Source of the DNA: Tomocerus qinae
Lineage: Eukaryota > Arthropoda > Collembola > Entomobryomorpha > Tomoceridae
Direction of reading: 5' to 3'
NCBI GenBank assembly: GCA_020055645.1
Contig: CM034546.1
Location: forward strand, 36,208,001-36,272,000
DNA: 64,000 nt
Under the pieces are notes generated by a model that had not been told where the DNA came from, made no database searches, and saw only the letters and a program-made list of their open reading frames with translations. The number at the start of each line of letters is the position of its first letter. Within the stretch, counting starts at the first letter, position 1. Positions 1,246 to 52,800 of the stretch are shown here, piece by piece. The position numbers and the translations under genes were made by a program.

Positions 1246-1368
1246 CTTTGCTATATTTATGCGTCGATTTATAATTTAACTCCATTGAAACCCCATTGTT
1301 AAGTATCAGTAGTATTTGTCAAATATCCATCAAAACTAAGTTATATTGTCTTATTTTTCGTTATTTAT

Positions 1369-1550
1369 TAGGATCGAAGCTTTGCTTAGTATCCTTATAA
1401 ATTTGTCGCCGTCACTCTGTCCGATCGTCTGGTCGTCTGGTCGTCCGGTCGTCTGATCGTCCACTAATTTTATTAGCACGTATATCTTTGCAACGACATA
1501 ACTTATTCCAAATCTGTTTTTTGCACATGGTAGCATATATATTCAAGAGC
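1369..1550 (+). repeat. GATCGAAGC-family interspersed repeat with GTCTGGTC simple repeat
   Basis: It begins AGGATCGAAGC, passes through a short tandem run of GTC(T/C)GGTC-like units at 1428-1460 and ends in a block with 'aacgacataactt' and 'tgcacatggtagca'. The first part recurs directly at 13349-13412 and the whole recurs inverted at about 14232-14358. The layout of a simple repeat flanked by conserved blocks suggests an old non-autonomous element. Confidence 0.7.
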
Positions 1551-1669
1551 AACCAGTTATGATTAGAATTCAAATTCGACGCATCCCCTGGTTTGTGGAA
1601 ACTAAATAATACAGAAGGTGAGGCAGACGGTAGTAGTATACAGCAGGTGAGTCAGGCAGCGTAGTAGTA

Positions 1670-2968
1670 CACTCTAAATAAATTTCAGCATATTTTAATC
1701 AAGTTTGGGGATTCGGTACTCAACATTTAAGTACAAAATGCGCTGACTCAACTGTTGAACAAAATTTGCTTAATGGGCTTGAGTAAAAACACTTGAGCTA
1801 ATTTTACTCACTTGTTGAGTAGTTTGTTCTATCTAAGTTGAGCTAACCATTGCAGTCGGTTAAGTAAAACATACTCAAAAATTGAGTAAACGCTAGTAAA
1901 CGTTTGAGTAGTACATGCTATCTTGTTGAGTAATTCTTATATAAAAGTTGAGCAAAACCATTAAATCAATAATTATTAAAACAATATTAAAATTTTTATT
2001 TATTAAAATTCTACAAACCAGTAGCAGATGCAGTGTCCTGTGGTAATTTTATCTTAATTAGAAAGAAATTGGACGGTGAAGCTGTACATCGTCATGAATA
2101 CTATAATTTCTGCAATGAAAAAGTATATATACAAACATACATTAAAATGATGCCTATAATGCACTTGTAGTTTTTTAGAATCAAAAAATGCGAAGAAAAA
2201 AATAAGGTAAATGTTCAAAAATGTTATAAATTAGAAATATCAAAAGTGTAGTATATATTATATTTTAATTGAGGAAATAGAACAATAACTTTACCTTTAA
2301 TTGTTGTCAGTAGCTAACTTCAGATTCAGAAGTTCATAATCAAAACCAGCACAAACACTAAATCCCAAGGTATTGGAAAATTTTAGATTGAAGGGGACGC
2401 ACGTTAAAGTAATTTCATGCTCCTCATTTTTAATTGTAACGGCCACCAGAAAACCGCAGGGTACAAGAGAATGGAACCATGACCTCAATTGTATTTGCAA
2501 AAAATTCGGTTTTTCGAGGCTGAAATTGCTTTATGTCCCATCACTATGACAATCTAAAACTTTACCTACCTTGGTAATGAATCCAATGTCGTAAAATAAA
2601 CTTCACATTTTAAAAATTAAATTCTAAAAAGTAAACATTCGAAGCCATGCCGTTAAATAAATAAACAGTGTATGCTCAACTATTAAGCAATAATTACTCA
2701 ATATGGTGACATTTTTTACTCAAAATTTGAAACATTGGTATATTACTCAATATTAATCAAAATTTAAGCAACTGTATAGTACGGTTAGTACAACCTCTTA
2801 AATGTTCAACCAAGTTGACTAAAAATTGTTAAACAGTTGACTGCATTTGATACAACCTTGAATGTTCAACCTGATTAGATAAAAATTAGCCAACATTTCT
2901 CCAATTTCTCCTCAAACTTGAGTAAAATAATTTTACTCAACAAAAATGACTGAAATTTATTTAGAGTG
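1670..2968. mobile_element. 1.3 kb TIR transposon with subterminal TTGAGT arrays
   Basis: The ends are inverted repeats starting CACTCTAAATAAATTTCAG (left at 1670; right complement ending at 2968), flanked on both sides by TA, a possible target duplication. About 280 bp inside each end are dense short motifs, TTGAGT/ACTCAA and TTGA(A/G)C, on both strands (1710-1960 and 2670-2940), as expected for subterminal transposase-binding repeats. The middle (about 1980-2640) has no transposase. It holds only a 60-codon open stretch on the minus strand (2500-2297, ending in TAA just before a possible donor) and a minus-strand AATAAA near 1995, perhaps a captured exon. The element therefore looks non-autonomous. 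The superfamily cannot be settled from the TIR alone. Confidence 0.75.
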
Positions 2969-3160
2969 TAGAGTAGAGGACTATGACTATGGGTGCTATC
3001 TAAGAGACTACACTCCGCGCTGGTATTAACATGCATTAAAACTGCGGGTACACAAATGCAGTAAAATAGCTTCACTGTTCTAGTACAACCTACACAATTT
3101 TCGTTTCATTTTCGTTTCATTTCGTCACTCCATTATAAATACGCCGTCCATCGTCATTTT

Positions 3161-3737
3161 ATTAGAAATACGTAATTACGTCAAAATATAAGGATTTTCG
3201 TTCATCGTAACTTCATTATGACAACACCTGTGACCTGTGCTGTGCTAGTATTAACTTCATCTGTGGTGAGTATAGTTAACTGTAATGATTACGACAACTT
3301 TATTAAATTTAGGTTGTTTACAGACTGAAAAATGAATCCTTCATCACTAATAAATGGTATTCTATATTATTTGCAGCAATAGTACAACTTTTTACCGTTT
3401 TACAGCCAGCAGTTCTGTATTTTGGATGAGAACTTTTTAACGTCAAAATTAGAAATACGTAATTACGTCAAAATATATGGATTGTCGTCCATCGTAACTT
3501 CATTATGTCAACACCTGTGGCCTGTGCTGTGCTAGTATTAACTTCATCTGTGGTGAGTATAGTTAACTGTAATGATTACGATAACTTATTAAATTAAGAT
3601 TGTTTACAGACTGTACAAAATGAATCCTTCATCATTAATAAATGGTATTCTATATTATTTGAAGCAATAGTACAACTTTTTAACGTTTTACAGCTAGCAG
3701 TTCTGTATTTTGGATGAGAACTTTTTAACGTCAAAAT
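3161..3737 (+). repeat. 287-bp tandem duplication upstream of the Helitron ORF
   Basis: Two head-to-tail copies begin with attagaaatacgtaattacg at 3161 and 3448 and run into each other with about 95 percent identity by eye. Each carries a donor-like 'gtggtgagta' and a pyrimidine-poor 'ttttacag' acceptor-like site. A third partial start (aaccaaatataagg) follows at 3738. Its position just before the first coding exon suggests a duplicated promoter / 5' UTR intron of the Helitron gene. Confidence 0.8.
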
Positions 3738-3878
3738 TAACCAAATATAAGGATTATCGTCCAACTGTGCATCTGTGGTCAGTAGCCATTATAAATTTTT
3801 TATTGATTGTTTATATTAAGGTTAATTTTTTAATTATTTGGAATCTCATGGTAATGTATTGGGTTTGTAATAGTAGAC

Positions 3879-6800
3879 ATGCCGAGAACAAAAAGGCAAA
3901 GTGTTGCTCAAAAGCAAAAAATAAAGCAAAAATTATACCGTGAAAATAAGGCTAAGCTAGCACAGTCGGTTACTGAAACAGACGATGATCAGGCTGTAAT
4001 TGTGGATTCTCCTTCTGAAAGTAAACAGAATCCAGCTATATCGGAAAAAAACTGTACTGATGAAGCTACTAATACTGTTTGTGAAGTAAAAATTAGAGAG
4101 GAATCAGAAACGCGACAGCGTAATACCATTTATCGACGTCAAGCTAGAGTAAATCCAGAAATAGCCGAACGAGATCGTATTGTCAAAAATATATCTCAAC
4201 AAAAGATCAGAGAGGACCCACAACGACGACAAGAGGAACAGACTGTTGACACTGCTCTACGTCGTCAAGCAAGACAAAACCCCGAAAAAGCTGAACGAGA
4301 CCGTGTTGTCAAAAAAATATCTCATCAAAAGATCAGAGAGGACCCACAGCGAAGACAAGAGGAACAAACTGTTAACACTGCTCTACGTAATCTAGCTAGA
4401 CAGACCCCAGAAAAAGCGGAACGAGACCGTGTTGTCAAAAATGTATCTCATCAAAAGATCAGAGAGGACCCAAACCGACGACAAGAGGAACAAACTGTTG
4501 ACACTGCTCTACGTCGTCTAGCTAGACAGACCCCAGAAAAAGCAGAACGAGACCGTGTTGTCAAAAATGTATCTCATCAAAAGATCAGAGAGGACCCAAA
4601 CCGACGACAAGAGGAACAAACTGTTGACACTGCTCTACGTCGTCTAGCTAGACAGACCCCAGAAAAAGCAGAACGAGACCGTGTTGTCAAAAATATATCT
4701 CAGCAAAAAATCAGAGAGGATCTACAACGACGACAAAAGGATCAGGCTGTTAATAATGCTTCACGAAGTTTGGCAAGACAGGATCCAATTTACCGTACAC
4801 CAGAGAAAATAAAGGATAATGAAAGAAAACGTAAATTGATGACTGATTCAGACCACAAAAGAGATGTCCAAATAAGAAATGCAGAACTACAAAGGAAAAA
4901 ACGAAGACTATTCCAACCATCGTACGAGGATAATCTAGATAAATACAAAGAAAAGATTTGTCAGTCGCCTTCGTTTATTTGTTCCTGTTGTGGTAGCCTT
5001 TGGTATAAAGAGTCAACATCGTCTATCACTGATGTAGTTCTTCAACAGAAAGGATTTAATGATGAAGACATTAAACGCATTTTACATGTAGCACAAGAAA
5101 AACATTTATTGTGCTCCACTTGTCGAAGGAACGTTAATCAAAAACGTGTTCCCAGACTCTGCCTCTCAAAAGGGTTTGATTTTCCAGTTATTCCTGACGC
5201 ATTACAGGTATATTTAGAAGCTGTAAATTGTATTGCAATGCATTTATAATATTTTAAAACGGAATCTATTAATGCATTATTGTTATATTATTGCTACTTT
5301 TTAGAATTTATCGCCCCTTGAAGAGAGATTAGTCGCGCTAAGAATTCCTTTCATGCAAATACGACCGCTGGGTTTCGACAAACAATCAGCCCTTCGAGGC
5401 AATGTTGTCAACGTTGAAAATGACTTGGATAAATGCGCACAAGTCCTTCCGAGGTCGTTTAAGGAAACATCAACAGTTCAAGTTCGATTTATGAGAAGAA
5501 TGAACTACGAGCGTCCTTATATGCACGAAATAATTCGTCCATATAAAGTTTACATCGCCGCCAAATACCTTATGACGACAGACTTGTATCAATTAGAAAA
5601 TGTGGTTTTGTCAGAGGATTGGTCAGGATTTAACGAAGGTAGAATCATATAGAATAGAATATATATGTATTAATATTAATTTAGTGATACATTGTGAAGT
5701 TATATTTATACATTCTATAGAGGAAACAATGGATTTTATTGCACCGGAAGAGGAATCGGACGAAAATAATGAAGTTACACAACAAGGTAAAACTATTTCA
5801 ACAATATAAATAAGTGAAGTTAATTTTTATTTTGTATGCGAATTATAAGTAAATGATTTCCCTAGAATCGACGATAGCATTTACATGTGCGGAGAATGGA
5901 GTGGCACAAACTGTACCAACTAATGATGATTTAGTAGCTGGTAAGTTACAAATAAATAAACAGCTCAAGTCGAAATTTTGGAACTATATGGTTGCCATTA
6001 TTTTCTGTTGTGCATTTCACGTCAAAAGTTTTGAACTTTATGGTTGCAATTGTTTTCTTTTGTGCATTTCACGTCAAAATCTTTGTCAATTTAATATTTT
6101 AGAGGAACTTGCAGCATTTGATCTACCAGAAAACGTACAAAACATCGGGGCAGAAGAAACTTTAGTGTTTAATGAAAGAGGCATTCGTGGAATACAGATT
6201 GCTCCAGGCGAAGATAATACACCAAAGCATCTACATTTTGACCCGAAAGCAGAAGAAATGTCCTTTCCTACCATATATTGTGGAAAAGTCCGTAATTTCG
6301 ATAAGCGTGACCGAATAACGTATACCGACATTGCTAAATCTGAACTTCGCAGATATGACCGACGAGCATGTGCCCCAACCAAAATCTTGTATTCATTCAA
6401 ACGATCTTTTAATGAAAAAGTTGGCAACGCAATACAAATATGTCTCAGACAGAAAACCAATAACGACATGCAATTGACAGCTTCCTCCGCAAGAAAACCA
6501 GAAGTTCTGGAGCAGCTTTTGCGTCAAGATGATGGATATGCAGTTTTCAAAAACTTACGGTCCTCACCATCTTATTGGAAAGAAAAATCAAAAAAGGTTC
6601 TTGCTATGGTACGGCAAATAGGAAAGTGCACTTTTTTCATTACTTTGTCTGCAGCAGAGACAAAGTGGAAGGAATTAATAATAATGCTTATGGAAATTGT
6701 TAAAAAAAAGAAGATTACTGAATACGATGTGACACAGCTGTCATCCGACGAAATTCTGCAATTGCTAAGAAGTGATCCTGTCACTTGTATGCGGCATTTT

Positions 6801-9800
6801 GACCACAGATACCGAGCATTATTAAGCCTAATTCTTAAACATGAATGTGGGATGTTTGCCCCTTATGCTTTACAAGACTACTTCAGTCGTTTAGAATTTC
6901 AGATGAGGGGGTCTCCACATTCCCATGGTTTATACTGGATCAAGGATGCCCCAATCTATGACAAAGACAATGTGGATTCTAAAAAGGCTTGTGTTGAATT
7001 TATCGATAAATTCATTACCTGTGACAGGTGTGAAGAAGGAGTTATGAATACATTAATAGGCTATCAAATCCATAAACATTCACAAACCTGTGTAAAAAAA
7101 CTTAAGAGGGGTAAAAAATGTCGTTTTGGATTTCCAAAACCGCCGATGAAAGAAACAATGATTCTTGACCCTTTGGAAAAAGATTTGGATGAAGAAATAA
7201 AGATAAAAGCAAATGACCTTTTCATTATTCTTCAAAAAAGATTAGATTCACTGGGCAGAGAATTTCAAGAAAACATAGAATATGAGACATTCTTGCAATC
7301 TTTGGATACAAACCACAATGATTACATTTTGGCTGTTCGGTCTTCCATTAAACGGACTACGGTATTTTTGAAGCGTGAAACGAGTTCCATTTTTGTCAAC
7401 CCTTACAATCGGAAACTTCTAGAAGCATGGGGTGCTAATATTGACGTACAATTTGTAGTCGACACGTACGCTTGTGCCAAATATTGTGTAAGCTATATTT
7501 TAAAATCTGAAGGAGGTGTGTCAAAACTATTGCAGGCTGCTTCAGTTGACGCCCGAAGAAAGGACTCTTCTGTACAAAATAAATTGAAGCAGTTTGCAAG
7601 TATTTTAATTAATGGATCCGAAATTTCAGCCCAAGAAGCAGTAGCATTTCTACTAGGAATCCCAAATACTTACTGTAGTAAGCAAGATGTTTTTATTAAC
7701 ACTGGACTTCCAGATGAAAGAGTCAAGATTTTGAAGCCCCAATGTGATTTAGACAAACTTGAAGACGATTCAGAAGACATATTTGCTAAAGGACTTTTAC
7801 ATTACTATACTAAACGTCCTGAAGAACTTGAAAATATATGCCTCGCGGAGTTTGCTTCAATGTACGATGTTTCCAAAACGAAAAGAGGTTTATCGACTAC
7901 TGCCACTGAAGGAAATGCTGACAATGAAAGAGAAGAGGGTGAAATAAATATATTTTTAAAATCTTAACGTCCATCGTCTCATAATATTGGATTTGTATAT
8001 AAACAAAAAACATAACGTTTTTACTAATTTCATGTGTAAATGTTTGTATTATAGCGAACGCTCATTGTGCTGAAGACGTAGTACAAGATGTTGAAACAGT
8101 TGAAAAATTGAAATACTTTAAACTCATGGACTCAAATGGCTTTGCAAAAGAAAGAAGAAATAGGAAAATAATTAGATTTCGTCATTATAGCAAAACCGAA
8201 GACCCATTAAATTATAACCGTGAAAGGTTAATGCTTTTCGTTCCCTGGCGGGATGAAGAAAAAGATTTACTTGAGAGAGACCCCAATCAAAACTTAGAGC
8301 TTACTAACAAAATCATTTTTCAAAATGCGTCACCTTTTTTTGCACTCCGAGATGTAGATGACAATGCGTTACGTGCAATAGCGGATGAAATAGAAAATGA
8401 AATGATAGATGAAAATGATGACAATAACAAGGCGTTAGTCGATGAAGATCTCGAAGGCCTAATAATGGAAGATTTGGGAGGTGAAAATTTAGTGCAAGAC
8501 TTATTTTCGGCCAATAAAAGAGTGCAACAATTTCTTCCTCCACGAATGATTGAAGAAAAAGAATATCTAAAGATCATGAGGACATTAAATGAAAAGCAAC
8601 GCCGATTTGTTCTTAATGCATTACATTTATTGAAGACATCAGATACTCCATTTTATCATTTCCTAAGTGGCGGAGCTGGAGTTGGGAAAAGTCATGCAAT
8701 TACAGCTTTAGTACAGAGTTTCTTAAGATATACCGCCCAATTTCCTAGCACTAATCCAAACGAGATTTGTGTTTTAGTTTCAGCACCAACTGGTAAAGCA
8801 GCGTTCAATGTCTTTGGAATGACACTACATAGCACATTTCATCTACCAGCTAACCAGTCAAGCAATGAGAAGAATATGTGCGACCTTAATGCGGATGAAG
8901 CTAGCACATTAAAGGCAAAGTTAATTGGAACAAAGTTATTTATTATCGATGAGATTTCAATGGTCAGCGTTCGGCAGTTTTATCAAATTGATCAAAGACT
9001 AAATCAAATATTTCATCCGCAGCAACCATTTGGAGGAAGATCTATTATAGTTGTTGGTCATTTTCGTCAATTACCACCAGTTTTAGCATTTCCTGTATTT
9101 ACAATCCCAAAGCAGTCCCCTATGGGATTGTGTGTTGGTAACTATTTATGGAACAAAATTGAGCTGTACGAAATCGATGAAATTATGCGCCAGAAAGGGG
9201 AATTTGAATTCTGTAAAGCCCTAAATAATATGGCCGAAGGTTGTATGGACCCAGAAGATATAGCCCTCCTGAGGTCCAGAGAAATTAGTGCCGACAACCA
9301 ACCTCCTCCGGATGCAATAAGATTATTTGCAAGTAATGCTGCATGCCAAAAGTATAACTCGGTGGTTTATGAATCGCTTAATACCGAATGGACAATATCC
9401 ACTGCATATGACAAAATAGAAGGTGATGTAGTCTTATCTTGCTGTAAATTCAATAATATATTCATATTTTAATTTTTAGATTTTAACGTGTAACGATTCA
9501 ATTGTAGTTTTTAAAGTTATAAAAAGAGATCTTTGTTATTTGACGTGAAACGATTTTGTTTAATTTTGGAGACATTTGAATTCAATTTTACGAATTTACA
9601 GGTTATGGAAGCGAGGCACAAAAGAAAAAGCAACAAGAATTTGCCAGAACTCTAGAAAGGGATAAAACGGATGGATTACCATATGAAACCCGACTACAAG
9701 TAGGAGCTGAGTACTTTGTCACCACAAACATAGATGTTCAAGATGGGCTATTTAATGGTTCAACTGGGAATTTGAAAATGATCGAATATGGTTATACCGC

Positions 9801-10914
9801 CAAGAATGTTCGTGTCCCAACATGTGTATGGATGGATTTCCGAAATCCTTTAATTGGCAGTGCCAGTAGAGCAAAGACAAAATCCTATCAATTACGTAAA
9901 AACATTGATCCGAAATGGGTTTCAATCAGAAGAATCTCTCGAAATCTTAGTCGTAATCGAAATCATGGAGGTCTGCAAATTATAAGGACGCAAATACCTT
10001 TAGTGGGTGCAAATGCGATGACAATAACAAAGTCACAAGGGTCTTCTATTCCCATCGTAGTTGTTAACGGCAGACCTGGTCCAACAAGAAAACTTAGAAG
10101 GGAATGGCTTTATGTTGCCTGCAGTAGAGCAATGTCTTTAGCTGGTCTATTCATTAATGGAAAATTTGAACCCCCTAAGGCGCCTCGTCATAATGATCCA
10201 GTGAGTTTAGAAATGGAAAGACTAAGAACTAAACCAGTGAAGTTTTCTCTGAAATTTTTACAGGACTATGATGATAAATATGAAAAAATATTTTTCCACA
10301 ATATCCAGTCCTTTATCGCACATCATTTGGACATTACGGGAGATCAGTGTGCCATGAGTAGTAATATTCTTGCTTTCGTGGAACCCCATACAGTTTCCAC
10401 TGACCATTTGAATATCCCAACATACCACTGTGTTCATAGGACTGATTCGCAGCACGGGAGAAACTCCGAAGGCGCGCTTATTTTTTCAAAAACCTTGATG
10501 CTTCCACATTCGTTTACGACAATAACGGATATTACTGAAAAACGAGGACACTGCATTTTTGTGAAATGGAAAGCATCTGGTGTAAATCTTATTATGACTT
10601 ATAAATCTCCTAAGTATTCAAAGACAAAGTTTGTATCTAGGCTGGATGGTTTGTTATCTACTACAGCTGAGAAAATCGTCGTATTTGGCGATGTAAACAT
10701 AAATATCCAAGATCAGAATGAATGTATTTTAAATGTTTTCCGTAAATACAATTTAAAAAGTAATCTCGATACAGCCAACTCTACTACCGATGGAGGGAGT
10801 CATATTGATATTTGCTTTTCTAACCTTGATGACTTGACAGCTTGGTGTTATGAAGGATATTATAGCTACCACAAGGCAATTTGTATTGTATGGCAGAAGT
10901 GTGAATTACGATGA
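3879..10914 (+). CDS. Helitron Rep-Pif1 helicase-endonuclease-like protein (7 exons, 2106 aa)
   Basis: Exons 3879-5207, 5305-5638, 5721-5786, 5866-5940, 6103-7938, 8055-9422 and 9602-10914 join at GT-AG sites with every phase matching, giving 2,107 codons with the stop. Order: a charged 42-residue repeat region (about residues 70-300), a cysteine-rich segment (CSCCG, CSTCRR; DUF6570-like), the Rep domain with HUH motif SPHSHG (about 872) and tyrosine motif YACAKY (about 1054), and Pif1 helicase with Walker A GGAGVGKS (about 1418), Walker B FIIDE and motif VI YVACSRA. The C-terminal 200 residues resemble an exonuclease/endonuclease/phosphatase domain (HNIQS, GDVNIN, SHIDI, YSYHKA). Oddities: the usual helicase GD..QLPP reads GHFRQLPP, and the usual SDH of the nuclease reads SYH. 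Rep proteins nick and rejoin single-stranded DNA in rolling-circle-like transposition. No frameshift or stop was seen. Confidence 0.9.
4080..4790 (+). repeat. 126-bp tandem repeat inside the Helitron ORF (42-aa units)
   Basis: 'gatcagagaggac' recurs every 126 bp (4205, 4331, 4457, 4583, then a variant at 4709), with a degenerate unit before. Units three and four are almost identical. Each encodes 42 residues rich in R, E, Q and K (motifs QKIREDP, RRQEEQTVDTAL, PEKAERDRVVKN), likely a long charged helix. Because 126 is a multiple of three, copy-number change keeps the frame. Confidence 0.9.
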
Positions 10915-11187
10915 AGGGACAATTAACTCAACTTTGATGTTATTACTGTATTTAGTTGTTATAATAATGCTGCTCATTAACTAATAATTAAATAATAACG
11001 TGATCATTATTGTAATATTAAAGTTAATAAAATTTTATTTATTGTAATGGTCCCATGCAAACACGTGGTCAATAAACATGCTTTAATTTTTAACACTTAA
11101 TTATTTAATATAATAATTAATTAATTAGCATTTAATTAGTAACTTAATTGATAAATGGAGATTCTTAAGGGTTTCAAAAACTTTTCA

Positions 11188-12535
11188 CTACAATTTCATT
11201 TGTTCATCAAACCAGTTGATCAAATCTATGTTTTCAGGAATATCGGGATCAATCTAAAAAATATAGATAATATAGTTTACAAAGTACTATAAATTTCATG
11301 TTAAATGTATCAAGAATTTTCCCTTGCTTACCCACAAAGTAGTATGGTTCACTGAGTTCAACGAAATCTGTCCCCCGTAATTGGAGACAACAGCATTCCT
11401 AATTGCCACCACACAATTTTCTTTCGGGAAATTTAAGTTTGCATTGCTACCCCATACTGTCATGTTTAGCTTGAATAATAAAATGCATAATTAATGTGAC
11501 TGGCATAGTAAAATGTAAGTAAAAATAAAATAAACATATATTATTATAATACAGTTACGAAAGATGTATCCGTAATATGAAAATCTCGCTTCATGCGTCC
11601 ACTAGCGGTTTTAGCAGCTCCCCAGTCTTTAACAACGACTCCGTATACATCTATCATTCATACAATCAATGTATTTAAATATACGGCAGTTTGGTTGACT
11701 TACAAATGTATCATTGTAGTTAAACTTACCAACTAAAGATTTAATTGGTTTCCCTTGTATTTCATCTAAGGGTATAAATTTAAATGGAATGGGTGGAAAT
11801 TCTACAGTATCCTCAGGCTCAAGTTTCACAAGTGTCGATGAAGCGTTCAGATAAATTTGGAACTTGTGGCCGGTCGAACTTCTGTATTGTGGATTTTCTA
11901 CCTTCACGTCAAAAGTCTGTAGTTTGTAAATATGATTTATCTAAAAATATATAGTTAAAAAAATACAGTTATACCAGCAACATGTAATACATATATTTAA
12001 AAACATTTCACGTCAATAGTTAATTTCATATATTACCTTCACCAAATCGTTCATTTCCTCAGCTTGAGACCGAAAAGCGACTACTGCTATCTCTCCGGTG
12101 TTGTCAATACCATGAAATTTTAGAATAGCGCCATATGTAGAATCCTGCAGTTCTGACTTCATAGTTACACGGAAGGATATGATGTCATTTACGCTAAAAT
12201 ATATGAATTAGAGAATTTTAAAATTACATTTTTCAAAATGAAATTTTTAGCATATACCTGACCCAAACGTCAACGGTGATTACTTACATACTTCCGGCTT
12301 CAAGACTGGCAATTTCCAACGACTTTGGCTCTTTGGGTTCATCAGATTTCATTTTCTTAATTTTCCAGAAGTCATATCCTAGTCTTTGTTTAATTGGGGT
12401 TTCGTAATGGCCATTTGATCTCAGATCATCCTTTGTAGGCGTAGACGGTCCACTTATGGCACCTCCCTTTGTTGGTGTCGATGGCCCACTTTCAGCAGCT
12501 CTCTTGGTTCCCGTTGACTTAGAGGAAGATGCCAT
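11188..12535 (-). CDS. RPA70-like single-stranded DNA binding protein (6 exons, 303 aa)
   Basis: Exons, in transcript order: 12535-12288, 12193-12037, 11940-11730, 11650-11559, 11469-11332 and 11253-11188. They total 912 nt and join in frame to a TAG stop. The N-terminus has two short repeats (SGPSTPTK). Then come two OB folds like RPA1 DBD-A (ISFRVTMKSE, HGIDNTGEIAVVAF) and DBD-B (SLVDVYGVVVKDWG, KRDFHITD, MTVWG, CVVAIRNAVVSNYGGQISL), ending in IDPDIPENIDLINWFDEQ, which matches the linker after DBD-B in cellular RPA1. It lacks the RPA70N domain and the zinc-bearing DBD-C, so it is about half the cellular length. Single-stranded DNA binding is inferred. It converges on the Helitron helicase gene with 273 bp between the stops, and probably travels with it. 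Confidence 0.88.
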
Positions 12536-13345
12536 TTAGACAAACCAGCTTGATAATTGTGACGTAAAATCAAATTAAACTGGTAATAAATATTGTATTT
12601 GAAAGCAAGTATCAGGAAGATGGTAATAAGACTGTTGACTATCACACTCAGTATTGAGCATTACTGACTAAAAAAACGTTCCGACGACGAATAGAAGCGT
12701 GATCGGTAGTGAGGGTAAACCGAAGCTAAGGTTAGGTGATTCGATGCATGTTGAATAATGTGCTGTAACTGTCCAAAAGATGGCATGTAAATTATGATAT
12801 ACGTAGATGTTGGCTTTGATGCTTTGATGACACAAATGGGATATATGCATTATTACTTTGCTAATGTAAGCATCCTTTTCTTGGTTAATTCTTATTCCCC
12901 AGGAATATTCTTATGATATTTAATGTATAATGTATTGCACCTATTTCCCATTTCATTGACTCATATCTGGTGCATTAATGAAGTGACCCAAACTTATAAC
13001 ATTATTTAATTAAATGTATTTTTTGTGGGAATTAAAAATATTGACATTTAATTTAACGGTTGTTCTACTACATGGTCATCTATTTCAAACATGTAAGATT
13101 GGTATTAATTCTTTTCTTAAATAATTAAAGCTAAATCAAAAACTACAATTCTTTTGTATTACAAACGCAACTCAAATTGTAACCGTAAAGACAAAAATAT
13201 TTGGCCATCATCAACGAATACATACAAGTCACATGTTATCATAATGGCTACAAATGTGAAGATTAAATCGAATTCATTGATTTCTTATAAGTCGAGGTAA
13301 AATGAAGTCAATTCTTAAATTATTTACGCTAAATCTAAAAACTTA
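12536..13345. other. AT-rich spacer, likely RPA-like gene 5' region
   Basis: There is no open frame with family features. The first part is the immediate upstream region of the RPA-like gene and should hold its promoter; I saw no convincing core element. The rest is unassigned. Confidence 0.4.
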
Positions 13346-13348
13346 CTA

Positions 13349-13412
13349 GGATCGAAATTTTGCTTAGTATCCTTATAAATTTGTCGCCGTCACTGTCCGA
13401 TCGTCCACTGTT
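13349..13412 (+). repeat. GATCGAAGC-family repeat, short direct copy
   Basis: About 60 bp matching 1371-1440: a start of the type GGATCGAA, then 'ttgcttagtatccttat' and 'ttgtcgccgtcact'. It stops at the GTCC simple repeat. Confidence 0.75.
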
Positions 13413-13682
13413 GGCAAGGAGCATTATCATAAATCACTATTTAGGTATTGTTTAAATCACAATACTATATTCAATTTGTATTGCAATCCAAAAAAATTTT
13501 AATCGGGTATAATCCTAATCGTAACACTCTATTCTTTCCAGCCTTACAGTCACCTGGTGCGGAATTGATTGCGTTCTGCATGTTGACTCTAAGATGGTGA
13601 AAAATCGACGTTCATTATTTGGAATAAACATTATCATTATCATTATCGTGGAATCTTCAAAATCCACAAGATATCACTATTG

Positions 13683-13935
13683 AGCTTGGTGTTATGAAGG
13701 ATATTATAGCTACCACAAGGCAATTTGTATTGTGTGCCCGAAGTCTGGATTACAATAATGAGTCAATTAACTTTATTGAAAATGTAATTTAAACACACAA
13801 ATAATAATAATGTAGCTCATTTACTAATAATTGAATATAATAAAACGTGAATACTATTGTATTACATATAAAGTTAATAAAATTTTATTTATGTAATGTT
13901 TCCATGCAAGCATGTCGTTTACTGATCCACTGCCA
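13683..13935 (+). mobile_element. relic of a second Helitron 3' end
   Basis: From 'gcttggtgttatgaagg' on, this matches 10842 onward of the Helitron: the last 70 or so coding bases of the nuclease-like domain, then the 3' flank including 'agttaataaaattttattta' and 'ccatgcaa'. Identity is high in the coding part and falls with indels in the flank. The upstream coding sequence is absent, so it is a 5'-truncated or deleted copy. The match ends near 13915, which brackets where the element's conserved 3' part stops. Confidence 0.8.
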
Positions 13936-14231
13936 GGTGGATATCAATTTCGCATTCTAATGATAACTGATTGTGGCTGAATACATGTGCTACCTAGCCA
14001 GGAGTCTGAGTACTTTTTGCTCCACCGTGCTCTTTTTTCCCCTCAAATTACATTTAGCATAAGTTGGTACACGGAAGTATTACTACCATGTACTACCATT
14101 TTATATAGTATGCTTTTGTGTCAATTTATTCTGAAAAGAAGAGGTGGGATTTTAAACAAAAATTGTTAGTACTCCGACTCTTAATTCTCTTATTACGAAG
14201 TGATAAGAATAGAATATACAGGTAATCTTGA

Positions 14232-14358
14232 TTAATGTGCTACCATATGCAAAAAGCAGATTTGAAACAAGTTACGTCGTTCCAAAAATATGCGTGCATA
14301 TTATTATCGAAGGACAACCAGACCACCAGAAATTTTTTTTAAATCTCCCGCTTCGATC
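14232..14358 (-). repeat. GATCGAAGC-family repeat, inverted copy
   Basis: The reverse complement reads from AGGATCGAAGC through a shortened GTC-rich part to the 'aacgacgtaactt' and 'gcatatggtagcac' block, matching 1370-1545. It ends just before the first RTK promoter block. Confidence 0.7.
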
Positions 14359-14394
14359 CTGCGTATACGCCTGTTTGCCAACAGTTTATTATTA

Positions 14395-14835
14395 TTCTAA
14401 AACCGCAGGTTTCCTTTTCTCATTGTAGTTCATACGGGGAGAGCACTGTGTATTTATTATTCACTCACTCAATTCCCATTTCAAATGCTTAGCTTAGCTG
14501 TTTAATGTGGGTTTCAATGACCTTAAACTATGTCACAGGAAAATGCCACAGTAACTGTTAATGTTGCTTCGTAGTTCTTACGAAGCAACATTAACAGTTA
14601 TGTACATCGAATAGTAAATAATAATTAGAATTCGATGGATTGAGCAAACACCCAATTCAATTTAAGCATAAGATACAAAATTTGCAAGCCAGTGGACTAA
14701 TAAAAACAAATAAACTTTCCTTGTTTTAAGTTAGTCATTCCAGCAAAAGTTAATAAGCTGGATGATCTATCGTTTATAATTTAGAAAGGGTGCACTAATA
14801 GCTTTGTTTTGTAGTCTTCTGCACAAGCTTATAAA
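14395..14835 (+). promoter_or_regulatory. RTK1 upstream block, conserved between tandem copies
   Basis: This stretch before the RTK1 start resembles the region before RTK2 (49405-49858) and blocks at 61910-62130 and 63725-64000. Shared pieces include 'tttccttttctcattgtag', 'tatttattattca', a 'gtcacaggaaaa.gcca' box, 'gaattcgatgg.ttgagc', 'tttccttgttttaag' and 'gtcttctgcacaagct' just before the ATG. Conservation outside coding exons suggests promoter and 5' UTR. A private hairpin insertion sits at 14552-14600. Confidence 0.6.
14552..14600. repeat. perfect 22-bp hairpin upstream of RTK1
   Basis: The arm 14552-14573 is the exact reverse complement of 14579-14600, with a 5-nt loop. The corresponding place upstream of RTK2 (near 49560) has no such structure, so it was gained here or lost there. 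Confidence 0.9.
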
Positions 14836-17800
14836 ATGAAAGTTACTTGCAAAATAATTCTCCTGTTTGTAATTCAGGAATTGTTTCTAACTAATGTGAT
14901 TGCCAATGTTACAATTTCTTCAAAAGAGACCGGAAGAAGTGTTACAACGTTGGAGTGCCAATTTACAGATAAAATTCAATCTGTCTACTGTAATATTACG
15001 ATTGACTTTCTTTTCCTTATTTTCAAGGATATAAAAGAACCTTTTGGTGGTTGCTATGACAACGACAACAACCTAAAAGTTTTATTGACTAAGGTATCTG
15101 AACTCAAGTCTTTTGAATGCATCTCTGACGATCCCATCGCAATTGATTTTGACTTTGGAGATAAAAAGCCATTGCCACAATTCACAAAATTTAAAACAGA
15201 ACGGATCTCTCCTGATTTCTCCAATTCAAGTTCCTATAAATTCAGAATTAAAATGATCGTCCCAAAAATGTATTCATATATCAACGAAGTAAGCTTTCGT
15301 CGTTTCACTTACACAATACTCAACCTTAATCAGACGACGGAAATTCAAAATACAAAAATAAGTTTCGTAATATTTGGTAATTAATTTCTTTTTGGTTAAG
15401 CTGTACCTGAAGTTATTGCTAAATTCAAATTAAAGTCCGGTTTCCTAGTTACGAACAGATTTTCATACTATCATATTCCCATTTAAATTACACATTACAC
15501 ATATTACCATATCATCGTTAAACCTAATATCTTGAAGTAGAAAATAAAAATGTGAAATTTTCAACATGTCATGCATAGGCTTCGACGAATCTTTTTTGCA
15601 TTTAATGTATGGCTGTTGGAGTAATGGTCTCTGGTCCTTAGGGATGTTCCTAAAAAAGTACGAATTTCACATAAAATCGGGATCACATTTACCCACAATT
15701 TTTGCGAATTACCTAGCAACAGCCCTACTTGTGGGTGATATCTCTGACCTTAATTACACGGTATTGCATGTAATGCAAATACAAGTACATTATTTGACGT
15801 TTTGGATTGCATTTTACTTAAATCTACACCCTGCTCAATTTGTCAGTCAGTTAGATTTTTGCAGGCACCTTGGCATACAAATTGTTTATGGCATTGATTA
15901 TAAAATTTCAATACTTAAATTTCATTTGCTCTGTACATGCTATAGCTTGTACTTATTTCAGAATATTTCTATTTTTCTATGTAGAAAAATTCTAGAAAAT
16001 CAATTCATTATTCGAATAGAAAGATTTTGTGTAGTCACCGTTAAATGAAATTGACACGAAGAACTAAGTAAATTTTAATCTACCAAAACTTTTTTAGATG
16101 ACACTTTTTAGATTTCCAATACTATATACTATCATCTTAAATAATTTCAGTTAATACTTGGACCAGCGGATTAATTTACGCATTTGCATTCTAGGTTTCT
16201 ATGATGCATTCGGACTCACGGGATTTACCAGCATTGAAGTCGCAGAGGAAGTAGTGTACCTTCCATGTAGCGATCACTCTGCCCATTATTCCCTTTATTT
16301 CCTGGAAGGAATCAAAGCTGATGGAACTTGTCCTGTAAATAACTTTTGGTGGTTATAATTTTTTTAACTTAAAATATTTACTTCTATATTTGAAATTTAG
16401 GATTCTCCTTCGAAACTAAATCTAAGTAGTGATAGCTCTATGGTCCAATTTAACAAATATGAAGGATTCAGAGTCAACATGAGCAGTCTATGGAACAGGA
16501 GAGGACTGTTGCTTTGTGTCAATAGAAACGTTGAAAAGGATCCGAGCAAGTGGTTTATTGGGGATACATGTATACCAATTGGACTACAATTTCCTCCAAG
16601 TATGTTTAATTAAGTAGTTTCTTAAGTATCTCATTACTAATTATTTATCGTTAGTTTCATTATTTTGCTGTGTTTTAAGCAACTTCAGTTTGAGGCAGTA
16701 AATAAATATACACATGCATTTACAGATCAACAAAATAGAAAGATATATACGGGTTGTCCCTGCCAAAAGGGATGGGAAGTAGTCTAAGTTCTAGGTCTCT
16801 AATTCGCCATCTGTATCTGAGGAATTACGAAAGATTACATTACGAAAGACAGTTTAAAATTAGTTCAATGAAAAAAGATTGATCAATATTTGTTGAAATT
16901 CCATTTTCAATGATTTTTAGATCATTTAATGTCAAATCTTGTTGATGTATTATTTACAGCTATTTAATTGATGTCAAATTACGATATTGACAGTTTCATA
17001 AATTCATTTGTTTTTTGGTAGGTACTCTATTTAGAAAACTGAATGTAAAACACTAAACACACGACGCTTTAGTTAATACAAGGCAATTAAACATTTGCAA
17101 ATTGACTTGGAAAGTTGTAGATGAATTATGCGCCATTGTGTTTGAATTTTGAAAGATTGAACCAAATAATATCCAATCATTTATGTCACAGGCTTACAAT
17201 TTTTCCCAGACGTCCTTGAGACATACTATGATTCGGTTGAATACCCAACACGTCTTTCGAAATCCAAAACTCGTTTGATTTGCAGTAGTACGGAAACAAA
17301 TGTTACGATTATTTCTGGGTAAGCATGTCCAGATAATTGAAGTAAAATCTAATATGATATGTTGTTACGTACTTAAGTAATGATTACATACAGAATGGGG
17401 AAGGAGGTAAATAATTCACTAAAACACTATGAAGTCAGCAAGCCTGAGCATCGTTTTGTAGCCGAAATGGAATTATCAAACTCTCAGTTGCAGGGAGATT
17501 ATGTTATAAACTGCACTAACGCTTCCAACACGACAAACATGTTATATAGTTGGCTGTTCTATGCTCTTAAACCCGACCTCAAATATGATCCCATTATGGA
17601 GGGATTCGTTTGCAGCACCAAAGAATATACCAATATTAAAATGCTGCAATTAGAATGTGATGACATTTCAAATTGTCGCATATGGGACAACTTTCTACAG
17701 TTTAAGGTAATCATTTTCACGTGATTTTGCAATCACCTAAATAAATAATAAACAGACGTAGAATACCGGCTGTTTAATCTTTGATACTTGATATGTCGAT

Positions 17801-23800: not shown

Positions 23801-24900
23801 AACTTACATGGTCATCTACGAAATATAAAACAAGAAATTTCAGAAAATTTGGATTTCCTTAGGTAAAAATACCAAGGGGGTTTAATTTGTCGAAGTAATT
23901 CTGATTATTGCAATTCATTTGCAGATCGGAATCATACACAAAATGTCTACGATGGTCAGAGGAAATTGCCAACGGGATGGATTATCTTTCCTTGAAACAT
24001 GTATATGCAAAAATTGAATCAAATGAAATTTGAAGGTATAATTATGCTTTATCGTCTTATGATTTCCATTTTCTGCATTCAGGTAATTCACTCGGATCTT
24101 GCTGCCCGGAATATTCTGTTGACGGAGAGGGAAGTAGTAAAAATATCGGATTTCGGATTAAGTCGTCGGATGTATAATTACGTGGACTACAAGAAAACGG
24201 ACAAATCAAATCCTCTGCCGTGGAAATGGATGGCTATCGAGTCTCTTAGAGAAATGACCTTCTCCACTCAGTCCGATGTCTGGGCCTATGGCGTCACTAT
24301 CTGGGAAATATTTTCTCTTGCAGACGTCCCCTTCCCTGGAATATCTTGGACTATTGAATTTGTGGAGATGTTGGACCAGGGACTCAGAAATCTTAAACCG
24401 AAATATGCCTCCAATGAATTGTAAGATTCTATTGTTGCCATTATTTTAATAAGACTGTAGATTGCATGTTGAAATTCATGTGCCAAGATAGATATCTTTA
24501 GCATAACATGAAATGGAAATGTTGATGTAACAAGCAGTCTTTCAGACTTTTTCATTCTGCCCTATAGGTACAACATTATGCTCTCCTGTTGGTACAAAAA
24601 TCCTGCCGACCGTCCAGATTTCGGTTCCTTGAGATATTTCTTCATGGATTACGTAAGCCCTAAATATGCATCAGTATCCATTTTGCAAAAGTCTCCATCA
24701 CATATCTTTCGTTTTAAAATATGTTATACTATTAGCATGATTGTTATACATCACAAATTACCCAAAAAGTTCAGCTAATTATGTTTTAAGTTTGTTTCAT
24801 TTGTGACGAAATTCTCCCATTATAGAAAGTTGAAGATTTAAACGGCGAGACATCCGACCGTCCAAACCAGGAAGACTTTTATGTGGACTTAAATCCTTAA
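14836..24900 (+). CDS. receptor tyrosine kinase, copy 1 (18 exons, 1083 aa)
   Basis: Exons: 14836-15376, 16195-16334, 16401-16599, 17192-17318, 17394-17706, 17928-18090, 19836-20015, 20101-20265, 20336-20466, 22769-22922, 23001-23113, 23214-23352, 23446-23658, 23763-23862, 23925-24000, 24083-24420, 24568-24652, 24826-24900. All phases match; the total is 3,252 nt. Order: signal peptide (MKVTCKIILLFVIQELFL), a fast-evolving cysteine-bearing ectodomain, an Ig domain split over exons 9-10 (LSCVSEGRPTPDVKW; DGEYVCRASN), one membrane span in exon 11, then the kinase with GSGEFGTVYKG, FAFK lysine, [15 protein letters not shown] and WKWMAIESL. The arginine of HRD is serine; the catalytic aspartate remains. 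The activation-loop tyrosine pair and the split before the HRD exon recall the PDGFR/VEGFR/FGFR class. The ligand is unknown. Confidence 0.92.
18192..19600. mobile_element. possible transposon in RTK1 intron 6
   Basis: This intron is 1.7 kb. Near its start is 'tatggcacacac...attgtatggc'. Near 19545-19595 is the approximate inverse, 'catacaaaatttctatgg', followed by 'aattccatttttccttt'. The same words form the ends of the foldback element at 26101-28502, so this may be a diverged relative. The interior shows no coding region. Confidence 0.4.
21482..22579. mobile_element. non-autonomous hAT transposon in RTK1 intron 9
   Basis: Ends CAAGGTATCG / CAACCCTG are imperfect inverted repeats of the hAT CAGGG type, flanked by an exact 8-bp direct repeat AACCTAAC (21474-21481 and 22580-22587), the size made by hAT transposases. 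Subterminal runs of GGGTTTTTT at 21500-21570 are mirrored as AAAAAACCC at 22465-22565. No transposase ORF is present. It lies between the two exons encoding the Ig domain. The matching intron of RTK2 (about 53777-54730) lacks it, so insertion followed the gene duplication. Confidence 0.9.
21869..22151. repeat. near-perfect palindrome, ~137-bp arms, inside the hAT element
   Basis: Left arm about 21869-22005 and right arm about 22014-22151 are reverse complements apart from one A/T-run length difference, with a loop under 10 nt. 'ttatattgacttta' occurs on both sides (from 21815 and from 22150), a possible direct repeat of an insertion nested in the hAT element. Confidence 0.9.
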
Positions 24901-25369
24901 AAAATATCAGATTTTGCCTTAAGTTGAAGCAATGGCCTTATACTAGAGTGAACAAGGAGCAAATAAGTGTAACAATGTCACTTTGGGGCAAATACTCATT
25001 CACACTCACACAAAATCAGATTAATCATTAACTTTGTCTTGTAGTTTGTAAATTACATTTAAATATGATTACTTCATCATTTTGAAATAAATTAAGCATT
25101 TCTAATTTCAAGAATGAAAAACGTGGAACCTTCTAATGCTTTGCCTTTCTTTATTAAATATTGAACCACATGATACATTACCCTATCATCAACCTCAAAC
25201 TCACGAATGATCCATTTGCAAAAATTCCTTTGCCCTAAATCATTCTTCCTCTCATTCATCATCGTCATTCATCTACTCACGTTAAAAGGGTTCACATCAG
25301 AAACAAATTTCTCATGCAATTTCTCATGCAACAACTACGAAAAGCATTTCATCTTAAAACGTGAACTCC

Positions 25370-48962: not shown

Positions 48963-49404
48963 GTCATCACAGATCCAGATATAGTTCGTTAAATTTTTAA
49001 CATACAAGCACAGCTGTGATGAAACGTGTTGTTACAATAACCGCTGCACGGCACACACCCCCGTTTACATCATCATTGATTAATTGTCGAAACTGTCATC
49101 GGTGATTTTGATAATTGATCATGCGCTCTGCTACACTAACACGAAGCGGTTAGGTATTATATTAGTAGGTAACTAAATATATTTCTACTACAGATATTTT
49201 AGAATATAGATGAACAATAATATTCGTTAGAAAGATATGTACGTAAGCATCACGTGACTTATGATTGAGTTGTTTTTCCCTTGAAGCTTGGTTATATTTA
49301 TGAGTTTATTTTAAAAATTAATTTCATTGAAAATCTAGTTAATAAGTATCATTATTTTTGATTGAAGAATGAAATAATTGATTAGTCTTAATGTACTTAC
49401 GAAC

Positions 49405-49858
49405 CGCGAATTTCCTTTTCTCATTTCCTACGGTAAGGCTACTAAGTATTTATTATTCATCGATTTCTTTGAAGAATTCCTTTCTAAATGCTTTGCTGAT
49501 TAATTTATTTTTAAAGAACCCCTAACCATAGTCACAGGAAAGCGCCAAAGCCATAGAAAATCTATTTATTAAGCACTTTAGTAATGTGCTTACTTGTATG
49601 ATTGGTAATGTATATCCGATAATAATGGTAATTACAATTCAATGGGATGAGCTAATAGACAGTTTAATTTAAGCATAATATACAAAATGTGAATGATATT
49701 GGCCTAATAAATACAAAAACTTTCCTTGTTTTAAGTCAGTCATCGTCTTCGTAATCAGAGTAAAAATTATATAGCTTAATAAGTAATCTATCGTTTGTAA
49801 TCTAGAAATGGTCCATTAAGTGTTTTGTTTTGTAGTCTTCTACACACAAGATTGCAAA
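49405..49858 (+). promoter_or_regulatory. RTK2 upstream block
   Basis: Matches the regions before RTK1 and at 61910 and 63725: 'cgaatttccttttctcatt', 'atttctttgaagaattcc', 'catagtcacaggaaa.cgcc', 'tttagtaatgtgctta', 'tttccttgttttaag' and 'gtcttctacacaa' just before the ATG. Presumed promoter and 5' UTR. Confidence 0.6.
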
Positions 49859-52800
49859 ATGAAATTTACTTGGAAAATAATTTGCGTTTTTGTAATTCAG
49901 GAATTATTTCTAACCAACGTGATTGCCAACGTTACAATTTTTTCAAAAAAGACTGGAAGAAATATTACAGCATTGAAATGCCAAATTACTGATAAAATTC
50001 AATCTGTTAACTGCAACATTACGATCCACCTTCTTTTCATTAAGAAAGAAGAAGCTTTTACAGGTTGCTATCAGAACGACAACAATCTAAAGGTTGTATT
50101 GAGTTCCGCATCTGACCTCAAGTCTTTCGAATGCATCTCTGACAATCCTATCACAATTGATTTTGACTTTGGAGACCAAAAGCCATTGGTACAATTCACA
50201 AAATTCAAAACGAAACGGAGCGTAACTGATTTTTCCAATTCCAGTTCCTACAAGTTCAAAATTAAAATGATTGTGCCAAATGATAGATCATATATTTTAG
50301 ATGAAAACTTTTATCGGTTGACTTACACAATACTCAACCTAAATCTACCGACGGAAATTCAAAATACGAAAATACGTTTCTTATTATTGGGTAATTAATA
50401 AAAATTTACTTTACGAAAATCTGAAAAAATACACAGGATACAATAGACGAGTAATGTCAAAGTCTCTAACTATTTTGCATTTTCTCCTTATGTAGTTGCA
50501 TTATCTACTCATGTCGTTGCATTATCTCTCCAATGTTGTGGCTTTTAAGTTACGTTTTCTCCCTTATCGTTTCATTATATAAATCGACATTTTCATAATC
50601 TATAGAGGTAAATTTGGGTTTTCGTTTTAGGCGTTTTTACCGAATACCGTTAAGGATGCTATAATTTAAGTGAATAATACACTCTTTGGACTAGTGAAAT
50701 TTCTAATACAAGTTACGCATTGGTATACTAGGTTTACGTGGGCTTAAGAAACGATTCACCAACATTGAAGTCGTAGAGAAAGTTCTGTACCTTCCATGCA
50801 TCGGTCAATATCATTCCCTTTTTTTCTTGGAGGAATTCAACTTCGACACTAATGTCCTGGAAACTTGCCCAGTAAAATGACTTTATGTTGGACTTATTTC
50901 TAATTTCTTTAACTTAAAATAATTACTCTTGTATTTGAAATTTAGGATTCTCCTTCGAAACTCAATCTAAGTGGCGATAGCTCTGTGATACAATGGAACT
51001 CTTTAGAAGGATTCAGAGTCAACATAAGCAGTATATGGAATAGACGTGGAATGTTGCTTTGTGTCAACAAAGACTTTAAACGTCCGAGCATTTGGAAAAC
51101 TATGCAGCCATGCTTTGGACTTCAATTTTCTCCAGGTATCTTTACATTTATCTTTGAGATACTATACTAAACATATATACACACACAGTGTCCCAGCCAA
51201 AAATGGATAAAATATAATATAAATATAGAAGCAACCAGTAGTATCTTAAAAGCTAGTACTTTTAAAACAATGTTTCATACATAAACATTTCAAAAGAACG
51301 TCTAAGTTAGGACATTGAAGTTTTGAAGAATGTTTAACTAATACTTATTAGTTGAAATTCCATTTTCGATATTTAATGTGCCTGTGTGCTCCATTCTTTC
51401 TACAATCACAATGCAAAGGTAACAAAAGGTACTTGTTTTTTACGGAAAAGCAAAAATGCACTGCTCTTTTTTTTAAAAAAAGTAGCCCTTTTTAACATTT
51501 AAAGTTATTTACAATTGCATCTTAAGTGGAAGTGAATATATGAATGGGGCACGCTGCTACATCAAAAAGGTAAAAAAGGCAAAAATAACTACTTTTAAAA
51601 AATCGTACTCCTACCTTTTTAATAAAAATGCCAAAATGATCCATTTTGTTTCTTGAAAATGAGCAAACCGGTCAAATGGAGTCAGCTGTCTCCATTTAAA
51701 TTCTGAGGCCTAATAGGCTTTCAAAAAGGAATGTAAAAGGAATGAAAAGAGATTTATCTATAGATAATAATTAACTGTCATCTACAAATGCAAAAATTAT
51801 TTTAAATATTTGCATCCAGATAAAAAATAATAGAAATATGCAGTAAAGTAATCCAAACAAATAATATCAAACAGTAAGTTTCTTCCCACCCCGTCGTCTT
51901 AGTTCTCTAAGTTATCATTATCAAATCAGAAAATCACACAATCCAGTTCTCTAAAACAATTAGGGTTGCTACAATGGTAAATTAATTACATTTAACACAA
52001 TTTTTTCTTTGCAATGCAACTTTTGAATGTTCATAACTGAATTAATTCTAATAATTTATTTCACAGGCTTACAAATTTACCCGAACATCCCTGTAATATT
52101 CTATGCTCGTGATTTGGTTGAATCCGCAACACGTATATCGAAATAAAATTGGCACTTGATTTGTAGTAGCACGAAAACAAACGTTACAATTATTTTAGGG
52201 TAAGAATGTCACTGTCAGACGATATAATAACTAAGATTTGTGAAGTTTTTTATTATTAAGTAATGACTGCATACAGATCCGAGGAGAAAATAAATGTTTC
52301 ACTAACACATTATGAAGTCAGAAAACCTGAGCATCGTTTTGTTTCGGAAATGGAAATATCAAACTCTCAGTTGAAGAATGTGTCATCCGAATATTATCCT
52401 ATAGCTTGTACTAACTCTCCCGACAAGGCAACAATTTTACATGTTTGGGTGTTCTCTGGTAGTCAAATCGAACTCATCTATGACCCCACAATAGAGAAAT
52501 TTGTTTGCAGCAATGTTAAAAACATCAATATTAGAATATTGCAAATAGAATGTAATGAAATTTCACAATGTCGCATGTGGGACAACTATCTACAGTATAA
52601 GGTTGTCATTTTCATGTGATTTAGGGTTTATTTTAAAATAAATTCCGTGAAAATAACGAAATATTAATTGTTTGTGGTAGAACGGACTTGAAATTTGCGA
52701 TGACCAGGAAATAACTCTTATAAAGGGGGGAAAATGTCAAGATAAGTCGTCATTCGCAAAACAAGACAATTTTTCATCTTGTCAATCTATTCCCACAGCC

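What the first reader, a model, noticed from the sequence alone, without database searches (positions are those of the whole stretch)
10915..12535. Convergent, spliced RPA70-like gene paired with the Helitron helicase
A 303-residue protein with the DBD-A and DBD-B folds and the post-DBD-B linker, but no RPA70N or DBD-C, faces the Rep-helicase gene across 273 bp. Plant Helitrons are known to carry RPA-like genes; a compact six-intron antisense version in an arthropod would be notable. It could supply the element's own strand-coating protein or compete with host RPA.
Basis: partly seen in the sequence, partly recalled or inferred. Interest (0 to 1): 0.8.

Follow-up and report, generated by a model that had tools for sequence, protein, structure and literature searches.

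The report
Jumping gene carrying an RPA-like gene
A large rolling-circle jumping gene in an animal-like genome carries, back to back with its main enzyme gene, its own cut-down copy of a DNA-coating protein, an arrangement of a kind already known from related jumping genes in mites and flies.

Summary
On the minus strand at 12535..11188 lies a spliced gene for a 305-residue protein; residues 88-302 match human RPA70 DBD-A, DBD-B and the following linker (E 7e-25). It has five introns, not six, and ends 273 bp from the stop of the Rep-helicase gene, which is the gene with six introns. That gene ends in an endonuclease-like domain, so the element is a Helentron. Helentron-type ends and a paralogous empty site bracket about 13.05 kb of inserted DNA with the RPA gene inside. 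The protein is far from core RPA1: 31.6% identical to human, whereas human and Ustilago share 49.8%, so a recent host RPA1 copy is very unlikely. RPA genes are already published for Helentrons of a mite (DBD-A and DBD-B) and Drosophila: a new member of a known kind. Antisense orientation and introns differ from the mite gene. Against: a partial copy of the element's 3' region, lying inside it, lacks the RPA gene, and other copies in the host genome could not be searched.

The parts
1354..14399 (+). Whole inserted DNA, about 13.05 kb, a Helentron (true 5' end probably near 1366; 3' end somewhere between 14385 and 14399)
   Evidence: Left flank 1230-1353 aligns to 49270-49390 (70%) and right flank 14401-14877 to 49402-49900 (69%), leaving 11 bp in the paralogue
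1370..1395 (+). 5' subTIR AGGATCGAAGC (1370-1380) and, 3 nt further, its imperfect inverted partner GCTTAGTATCCT (1384-1395)
   Evidence: hairpin in the fold
1425..1461 (.). 8-bp tandem repeat next to the 5' end (DINE-1 elements carry a microsatellite)
   Evidence: DINE-1 description
3879..10914 (+). Rep-helicase-endonuclease gene, 7 exons and 6 introns, about 2,106 aa; exons 3879-5207, 5305-5638, 5721-5786, 5866-5940, 6103-7938, 8055-9422, 9602-10914
   Evidence: Splice enumeration, this model read; Helitron_like_N 3e-24, PIF1 2e-25
10240..10911 (+). C-terminal EEP/AP-type endonuclease-like domain
   Evidence: No Pfam family above cut-off (best DUF7861, E 0.064); aligns over most of the domain with the endonuclease of L037, 20% identity, 30.8 bits, E 1e-4, against a maximum of 26.6 bits in 60 shuffles; L037 and L055 score Exo_endo_phos 3e-10 and 1e-10
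11026..11043 (.). Possible bidirectional poly(A) signal between the convergent genes (AATAAA at 11026 on +; on - at 11034 and 11038)
   Evidence: consensus match only
11188..12535 (-). RPA70-like gene, 6 exons: 12535-12288, 12193-12037, 11940-11730, 11650-11553, 11469-11332, 11253-11188; 305 aa
13343..13405 (+). Second copy of the 5' terminus (92% to 1365-1429), inside the element
13683..13918 (+). Copy of the endonuclease tail and 3' UTR (78% to 10839-11069), followed by the 3' terminal region with no RPA gene between
14226..14330 (-). Long subterminal inverted repeat, 78% to 1444-1548
14350..14384 (-). 3' subTIR GCTTCGATCCT (14350-14360), palindrome GCGTATACGC (14361-14370) and stem-loop CTGTTTGCCAACAG (14371-14384, stem of 5 bp)
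   Evidence: both small hairpins are in the fold
49270..49900 (+). Paralogous empty site (not part of the element)

Best explanation
This is a Helentron (endonuclease-bearing rolling-circle transposon) that carries its own RPA70-like single-strand DNA-binding protein. Shown: a protein with the two RPA70 OB domains A and B, its DNA-stacking aromatics kept, an open spliced reading frame, and a place inside the element. Inferred: the Rep domain nicks one strand at an end and the PIF1 helicase peels it off; the element's RPA coats the displaced strand, guarding it from nucleases and from folding until it is circularised or inserted. As it lacks DBD-C (the heterotrimer-forming part) and RPA70N (a protein-recruiting part; both roles recalled), it would act alone and draw in few host repair factors.
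For: RPA70 DBD-A/B match E 7e-25, REPA_OB_2 9e-11. Human F238, F269, W361 and F386 align with F, Y, W and Y; K263, R335 and K343 are kept (residue roles and numbering recalled). Open gene with GT-AG introns. Rep, PIF1 and endonuclease-like domain in an open 7-exon gene. Helentron ends: 11-bp identical subTIRs (the only two exact matches among 8 places at up to 2 mismatches), 5' inverted repeat and 3' stem-loop, at spacings like those PMC4067079 gives if the 3' end is at 14399. Empty site. Precedent in a mite and Drosophila. TTGACGTGAA occurs 5 times in the element (4 in introns of both genes, 1 in an RPA exon) and 0 times in the other 51 kb; shuffle mean 0.05 for the element.
Against: No second copy of the gene pair could be sought in the host genome. 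A partial copy of the 3' region at 13683-14399 has no RPA gene in the matching place. No RPA match in G001 and G002, which hold two of the five loci with a Rep-helicase match (0 of 2, no positive control). Human R210, R234 and R382 align with Q, A and V and R216 with a gap. Sharing of k-mers between introns of the two genes was not significant against shuffles (75, 38 and 42 of 300 reach it at k=10, 11, 12), though only 7 of 300 sets of outside chunks reach it at k=11; the TTGACGTGAA motif was chosen after the fact and two of its five places lie in one 52-bp tandem repeat. The 3' stem is only 5 bp, and a scan for stems of 6 bp or more did not list it.
Confidence: 0.82

Rival explanations
1. 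A recent copy of the host RPA1 gene, captured or landed here by chance.
For: Helitrons capture host gene pieces (PMC6431247 passage); the gene has introns, which suits DNA-level capture.
Against: Over DBD-A/B it is 31.6% identical to human and 26.9% to Ustilago, and 23.3% to yeast DBD-A, while human-Ustilago is 49.8%, human-yeast DBD-A 46.8% and Ustilago-yeast DBD-A 55.3%. A recently copied animal RPA1 should be at least as close to human as a fungus is. No host RPA1 was available for a direct comparison.
Confidence: 0.04
2. An old passenger: a captured gene no longer doing anything for transposition.
For: The partial copy at 13683-14399 lacks it; no RPA was found in the genomes of L037 and L055 (weak).
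Against: The frame is open across 6 exons, the DNA-stacking aromatics are kept, and RPA genes recur in Helentrons of other species.
Confidence: 0.08
3. A composite: the RPA block (about 11070-13342) lay between two neighbouring elements, and read-through from the first 5' end to the second 3' end joined them. (It does not exclude that the RPA gene works for the element now.)
For: A second 5' terminus lies at 13343-13405, and a copy of the endonuclease tail at 13683-13918 runs into the 3' terminal region; the block sits between these breakpoints.
Against: It needs an RPA-like gene to lie by chance between two Helentrons, when Helentrons are known to carry RPA. The outer ends pair best with each other: 11 of 11 subTIR bases, against 9 of 11 for the inner copy.
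Confidence: 0.15

Closest known systems
Helentron-Mo of the mite Metaseiulus occidentalis (Thomas et al. 2014, PMC4067079; passages, section 7)
   Same: Rep/helicase/endonuclease protein plus a separate RPA gene with DBD-A and DBD-B; subTIRs and 3' palindrome.
   Different: There both reading frames are given as without introns (1,881 and 358 aa, frames +1 and +3). Here there are six and five introns, 305 aa, and the RPA gene is on the opposite strand. The mite sequence itself was not at hand.
DINE-1/HINE and Drosophila Helentrons (same paper; RPA homologues of two Drosophila Helentrons in the tree of PMC4683698, passages)
   Same: subTIR, 5' inverted repeat a few bases away, microsatellite, 3' stem-loop.
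   Different: DINE-1 subTIRs are 13 bp, here 11. RPA sequences of these elements could not be fetched, so kinship was not measured.
Plant Helitron RPA (PHRPA; PMC4683698, passages)
   Same: RPA70-like gene in a rolling-circle transposon.
   Different: PMC4683698 places PHRPA and Drosophila Helentron RPA apart and argues for separate acquisitions; no PHRPA sequence was available for comparison.
Core RPA1/RPA70 (human 1jmc, 8rk2; Ustilago 4gnx)
   Same: DBD-A, DBD-B and the NPDIPE..WF linker.
   Different: No RPA70N and no DBD-C hit; about 30% identity.
Helentron-like loci L037 (in a bin titled Candidatus Poribacteria) and L055 (in a bin titled Photobacterium), probably eukaryotic DNA (inference)
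   Same: Helitron_like_N, PIF1 and Exo_endo_phos in one reading frame.
   Different: L037 carries an OTU protease at the C-terminus; no RPA match in their genomes.

Membership tests
Helentron | HUH Rep domain, with S between G and P in the RG-S-PHxH motif (diagnostic in PMC4067079) | tested here: met
   Helitron_like_N 3e-24; EFQMRGSPHSHG and the two tyrosines of KYCVSYI
Helentron | PIF1-type helicase | tested here: met
   PF05970 2e-25, UvrD_C_2 4e-9
Helentron | AP-type endonuclease fused to the C-terminus | tested here: met
   Homology with the L037 endonuclease (Exo_endo_phos in L037 and L055). Pfam alone finds nothing above cut-off, the model was too poor to use, and where L037 has YYSDHD the window has YYSYHK
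Helentron | subTIRs (12-15 bp in the mite, 13 in DINE-1; 11 identical bp is that paper's bar for one family), 5' inverted repeat, 3' palindrome | tested here: met
   1370-1380 and 14350-14360 identical over 11 bp; imperfect IR 1384-1395, stem-loop 14371-14384 with 5-bp stem
Helentron | Insertion into TT / T-rich target | tested here: inconclusive
   Empty site found, but the flanks are about 70% identical, so the exact target is blurred
Helentron | Same gene pair in other copies of the element | not testable with these tools
   No whole genome held
RPA70 (RPA1) orthologue | DBD-A and DBD-B | tested here: met
RPA70 (RPA1) orthologue | RPA70N and DBD-C present | tested here: not met
   No Pfam hit in the 305 aa; DNA on either side of the gene was not scanned for them
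Plant Helitron RPA | Groups with PHRPA in a tree | not tested
   No PHRPA sequence at hand

The most novel reading that the evidence does not exclude
A Helentron lineage that took up an RPA gene independently, or remodelled it into a five-intron antisense gene sharing a bidirectional poly(A) signal with the transposase gene. Splicing and overlapping convergent 3' ends would then set the ratio of transposase to strand-coating protein, a built-in regulatory switch. I saw no such description in the passages I read of five papers.
Probability: 0.2. Interest if true: 0.5.

Novelty: new member of a known kind. Interest (0 to 1): 0.3.

Why it matters
It is a well-bounded Helentron with both its genes open, so it is a fair candidate for testing whether transposon-borne RPA helps rolling-circle transposition, a role that PMC4067079 cites as proposed while saying that experiments are needed. 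It also suggests that the RPA gene of a Helentron can be spliced and on the opposite strand.

Tried and rejected
Own-genome search: no genome held. The five protein queries matched 2, 3, 1, 41 and 116 stretches by pattern and confirmed none; one search had 0 matches; one search gave 17 loci. Of all 136 loci, 5 matched the Rep-helicase protein at E <= 0.01 (L037, L055, L135, L136, L101), all from genome contigs and none of the 17 viral ones; 1 matched RPA, at E 0.008, taken as chance (L023). RPA was then sought in the genomes of 2 of those 5 loci only.

Structure of the endonuclease alone: AlphaFold2 model with mean pLDDT 36, too poor to use, no fold search made. PDB search with the Rep part gave one chance hit, E 2.8; with the helicase C-terminus, PIF1 at E 0.0014-0.0067 and otherwise hits at E 0.068 or more. 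tRNA and Rfam scans were empty. A tree of RPA OB folds was not built: only human, Ustilago and yeast (DBD-A) sequences were at hand, so pairwise identities were used. Of three paralogous stretches, the left flank matched only that at 49 kb (E 2e-10); those at 61 and 63 kb gave nothing better than E 0.01, though the right flank also matches that at 61 kb.

Papers seen as passages without use for the RPA question: PMC5148889 (no RPA-like genes in the Fusarium elements) and PMC6544945 (does not mention RPA).

Rejected: recent host RPA1 copy; six introns in the RPA gene; intron kinship between the two genes as a whole (not significant against shuffles).

Full report
What is there. On the minus strand, exons 12535-12288, 12193-12037, 11940-11730, 11650-11553, 11469-11332 and 11253-11188 join to 305 codons and a stop. 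Of 144 GT-AG combinations tried at five frame breaks, 4 read to the natural stop, giving 305, 303, 303 and 301 residues. Residues 88-302 match human RPA70 DBD-A, DBD-B and the linker after it (1jmc, E 7e-25) and Ustilago RPA70 (4gnx, 3e-15). Pfam finds REPA_OB_2 (9e-11) above its cut-off, POT1 and tRNA_anti-codon below theirs, and neither RPA70N nor DBD-C. The four aromatic positions that stack on DNA in human RPA70 (F238, F269, W361, F386; roles recalled) are F, Y, W and Y here, and K263, R335 and K343 are kept; R210, R216, R234 and R382 are not. The gene ends 273 bp from the stop of the Rep-helicase gene. Between them AATAAA stands on both strands at 11026-11043.

The partner gene. Seven exons from 3879 to 10914 read without a stop (8 splice variants of 2,103-2,118 aa; the 2,106-aa model was used). 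It has Helitron_like_N (3e-24), PIF1 (2e-25) and UvrD_C_2 (4e-9). The C-terminal 224 residues give no Pfam family above cut-off (best DUF7861, E 0.064), but they align with the endonuclease of L037 (20% identity, E 1e-4; 30.8 bits against a maximum of 26.6 in 60 shuffles). L037 and L055 carry Exo_endo_phos (3e-10, 1e-10) after the same Rep and PIF1 domains, and their Rep parts are each 33% identical to the window's. The Rep motif EFQMRGSPHSHG has the serine that PMC4067079 names as diagnostic for Helentrons. So the element is a Helentron. One caution: where L037 has YYSDHD, the window has YYSYHK.

The ends. Left flank 1230-1353 aligns to 49270-49390 (70%, E 2e-10) and right flank 14401-14877 to 49402-49900 (69%, E 8e-66): the paralogue is an empty site with 11 bp where this locus has about 13.05 kb. 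The left flank matched only this one of three paralogous stretches. Just inside lie AGGATCGAAGC at 1370-1380 and its exact inverse at 14350-14360. At up to two mismatches 8 places match in the window against 7.5 expected; only these two are exact. An imperfect inverted partner follows 3 nt after the left subTIR (1384-1395), an 8-bp tandem repeat lies at 1425-1461, and a 3' stem-loop with a 5-bp stem at 14371-14384. PMC4067079 describes such features for DINE-1 and mite HINEs: subTIRs of 12-15 bp (13 in DINE-1), the 3' subTIR 38-60 bp and a 5-10 bp palindrome 8-35 bp from the 3' end. These spacings are met if the 3' end is at 14399 (39 and 15 bp), less well if it is nearer 14385. The RPA gene is therefore inside the element.

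A complication. Inside the element, 13343-13405 repeats the 5' terminus (92%) and 13683-13918 repeats the endonuclease tail and 3' UTR (78%), running into the 3' terminal region without an RPA gene. This may be a shortened relative (HINE) in tandem or nested, or the mark of a read-through composite. I cannot tell which. It is the strongest point against calling the RPA gene a fixed part of the family.

Origin of the gene. Over DBD-A/B it is 31.6% identical to human (209 columns) and 26.9% to Ustilago (208), and 23.3% to yeast DBD-A (90), while human-Ustilago is 49.8% (219). A recent copy of an animal RPA1 would not be this far off. This is a pairwise argument, not a tree, and no host RPA1 was at hand.

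Link between the two genes. TTGACGTGAA occurs 5 times in the element, 4 in introns of both genes and 1 in an RPA exon, and 0 times in the other 51 kb; shuffle mean 0.05 for the element. Two of the five come from one 52-bp tandem repeat, and the motif was picked after seeing it. A general comparison of k-mers shared by the introns was not significant against shuffles (38 of 300 at k=11); against random chunks from outside the element, 7 of 300 reached it. I count this as a weak link.

What is known. PMC4067079 (passages, section 7) reports a mite Helentron with an intronless 358-aa RPA of DBD-A and DBD-B, and says that Helentrons encode RPA and OTU proteins. PMC4683698 (passages) puts two Drosophila Helentron RPAs in its tree and mentions RPA homologues in zebrafish and sea anemone Helitrons. 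[quoted passage not shown] So the kind is known; the splicing and antisense orientation differ from the one published gene whose structure I could read.

Host. The neighbours include C2H2 zinc-finger and tyrosine-kinase coding pieces, which fits an animal; 'arthropod' rests on nothing tested here.

Noticed in passing
3879-5249: The N-terminus of the Rep-helicase holds about five 126-bp (42-residue) tandem repeats before a CxxC zinc-finger-like part; no Pfam family above cut-off.
   Followed up: partly
6016, 6068, 9540, 11903, 12007: TTGACGTGAA is found in this window only inside the element, mostly in introns of both genes; TTGACGT also recurs upstream of the Rep-helicase.
   Followed up: partly
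14597-25148 and 49605-58299: Large diverged duplication with small proteins that start like secreted ones (no Pfam hit for the one scanned) and tyrosine-kinase pieces.
   Followed up: no
34247-37516 and 39229-41844: Duplicated C2H2 zinc-finger genes, each with a CxxC...CxxC leader reminiscent of ZAD (label recalled; the one leader scanned has no Pfam hit).
   Followed up: no
21869-22151, 35027-35480, 61360-61635: Long palindromes of about 280-450 bp, 98%, 80% and 91% self-complementary, possibly foldback elements.
   Followed up: no
L037, L055, L135, L136, L101: Helitron/Helentron-like genes in records filed as bacterial bins (L135 titled as a sponge symbiont), probably eukaryotic DNA binned with bacteria.
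   Followed up: partly
10839-10911: The endonuclease-like domain ends YYSYHK where L037 has YYSDHD; its activity may be altered.
   Followed up: no
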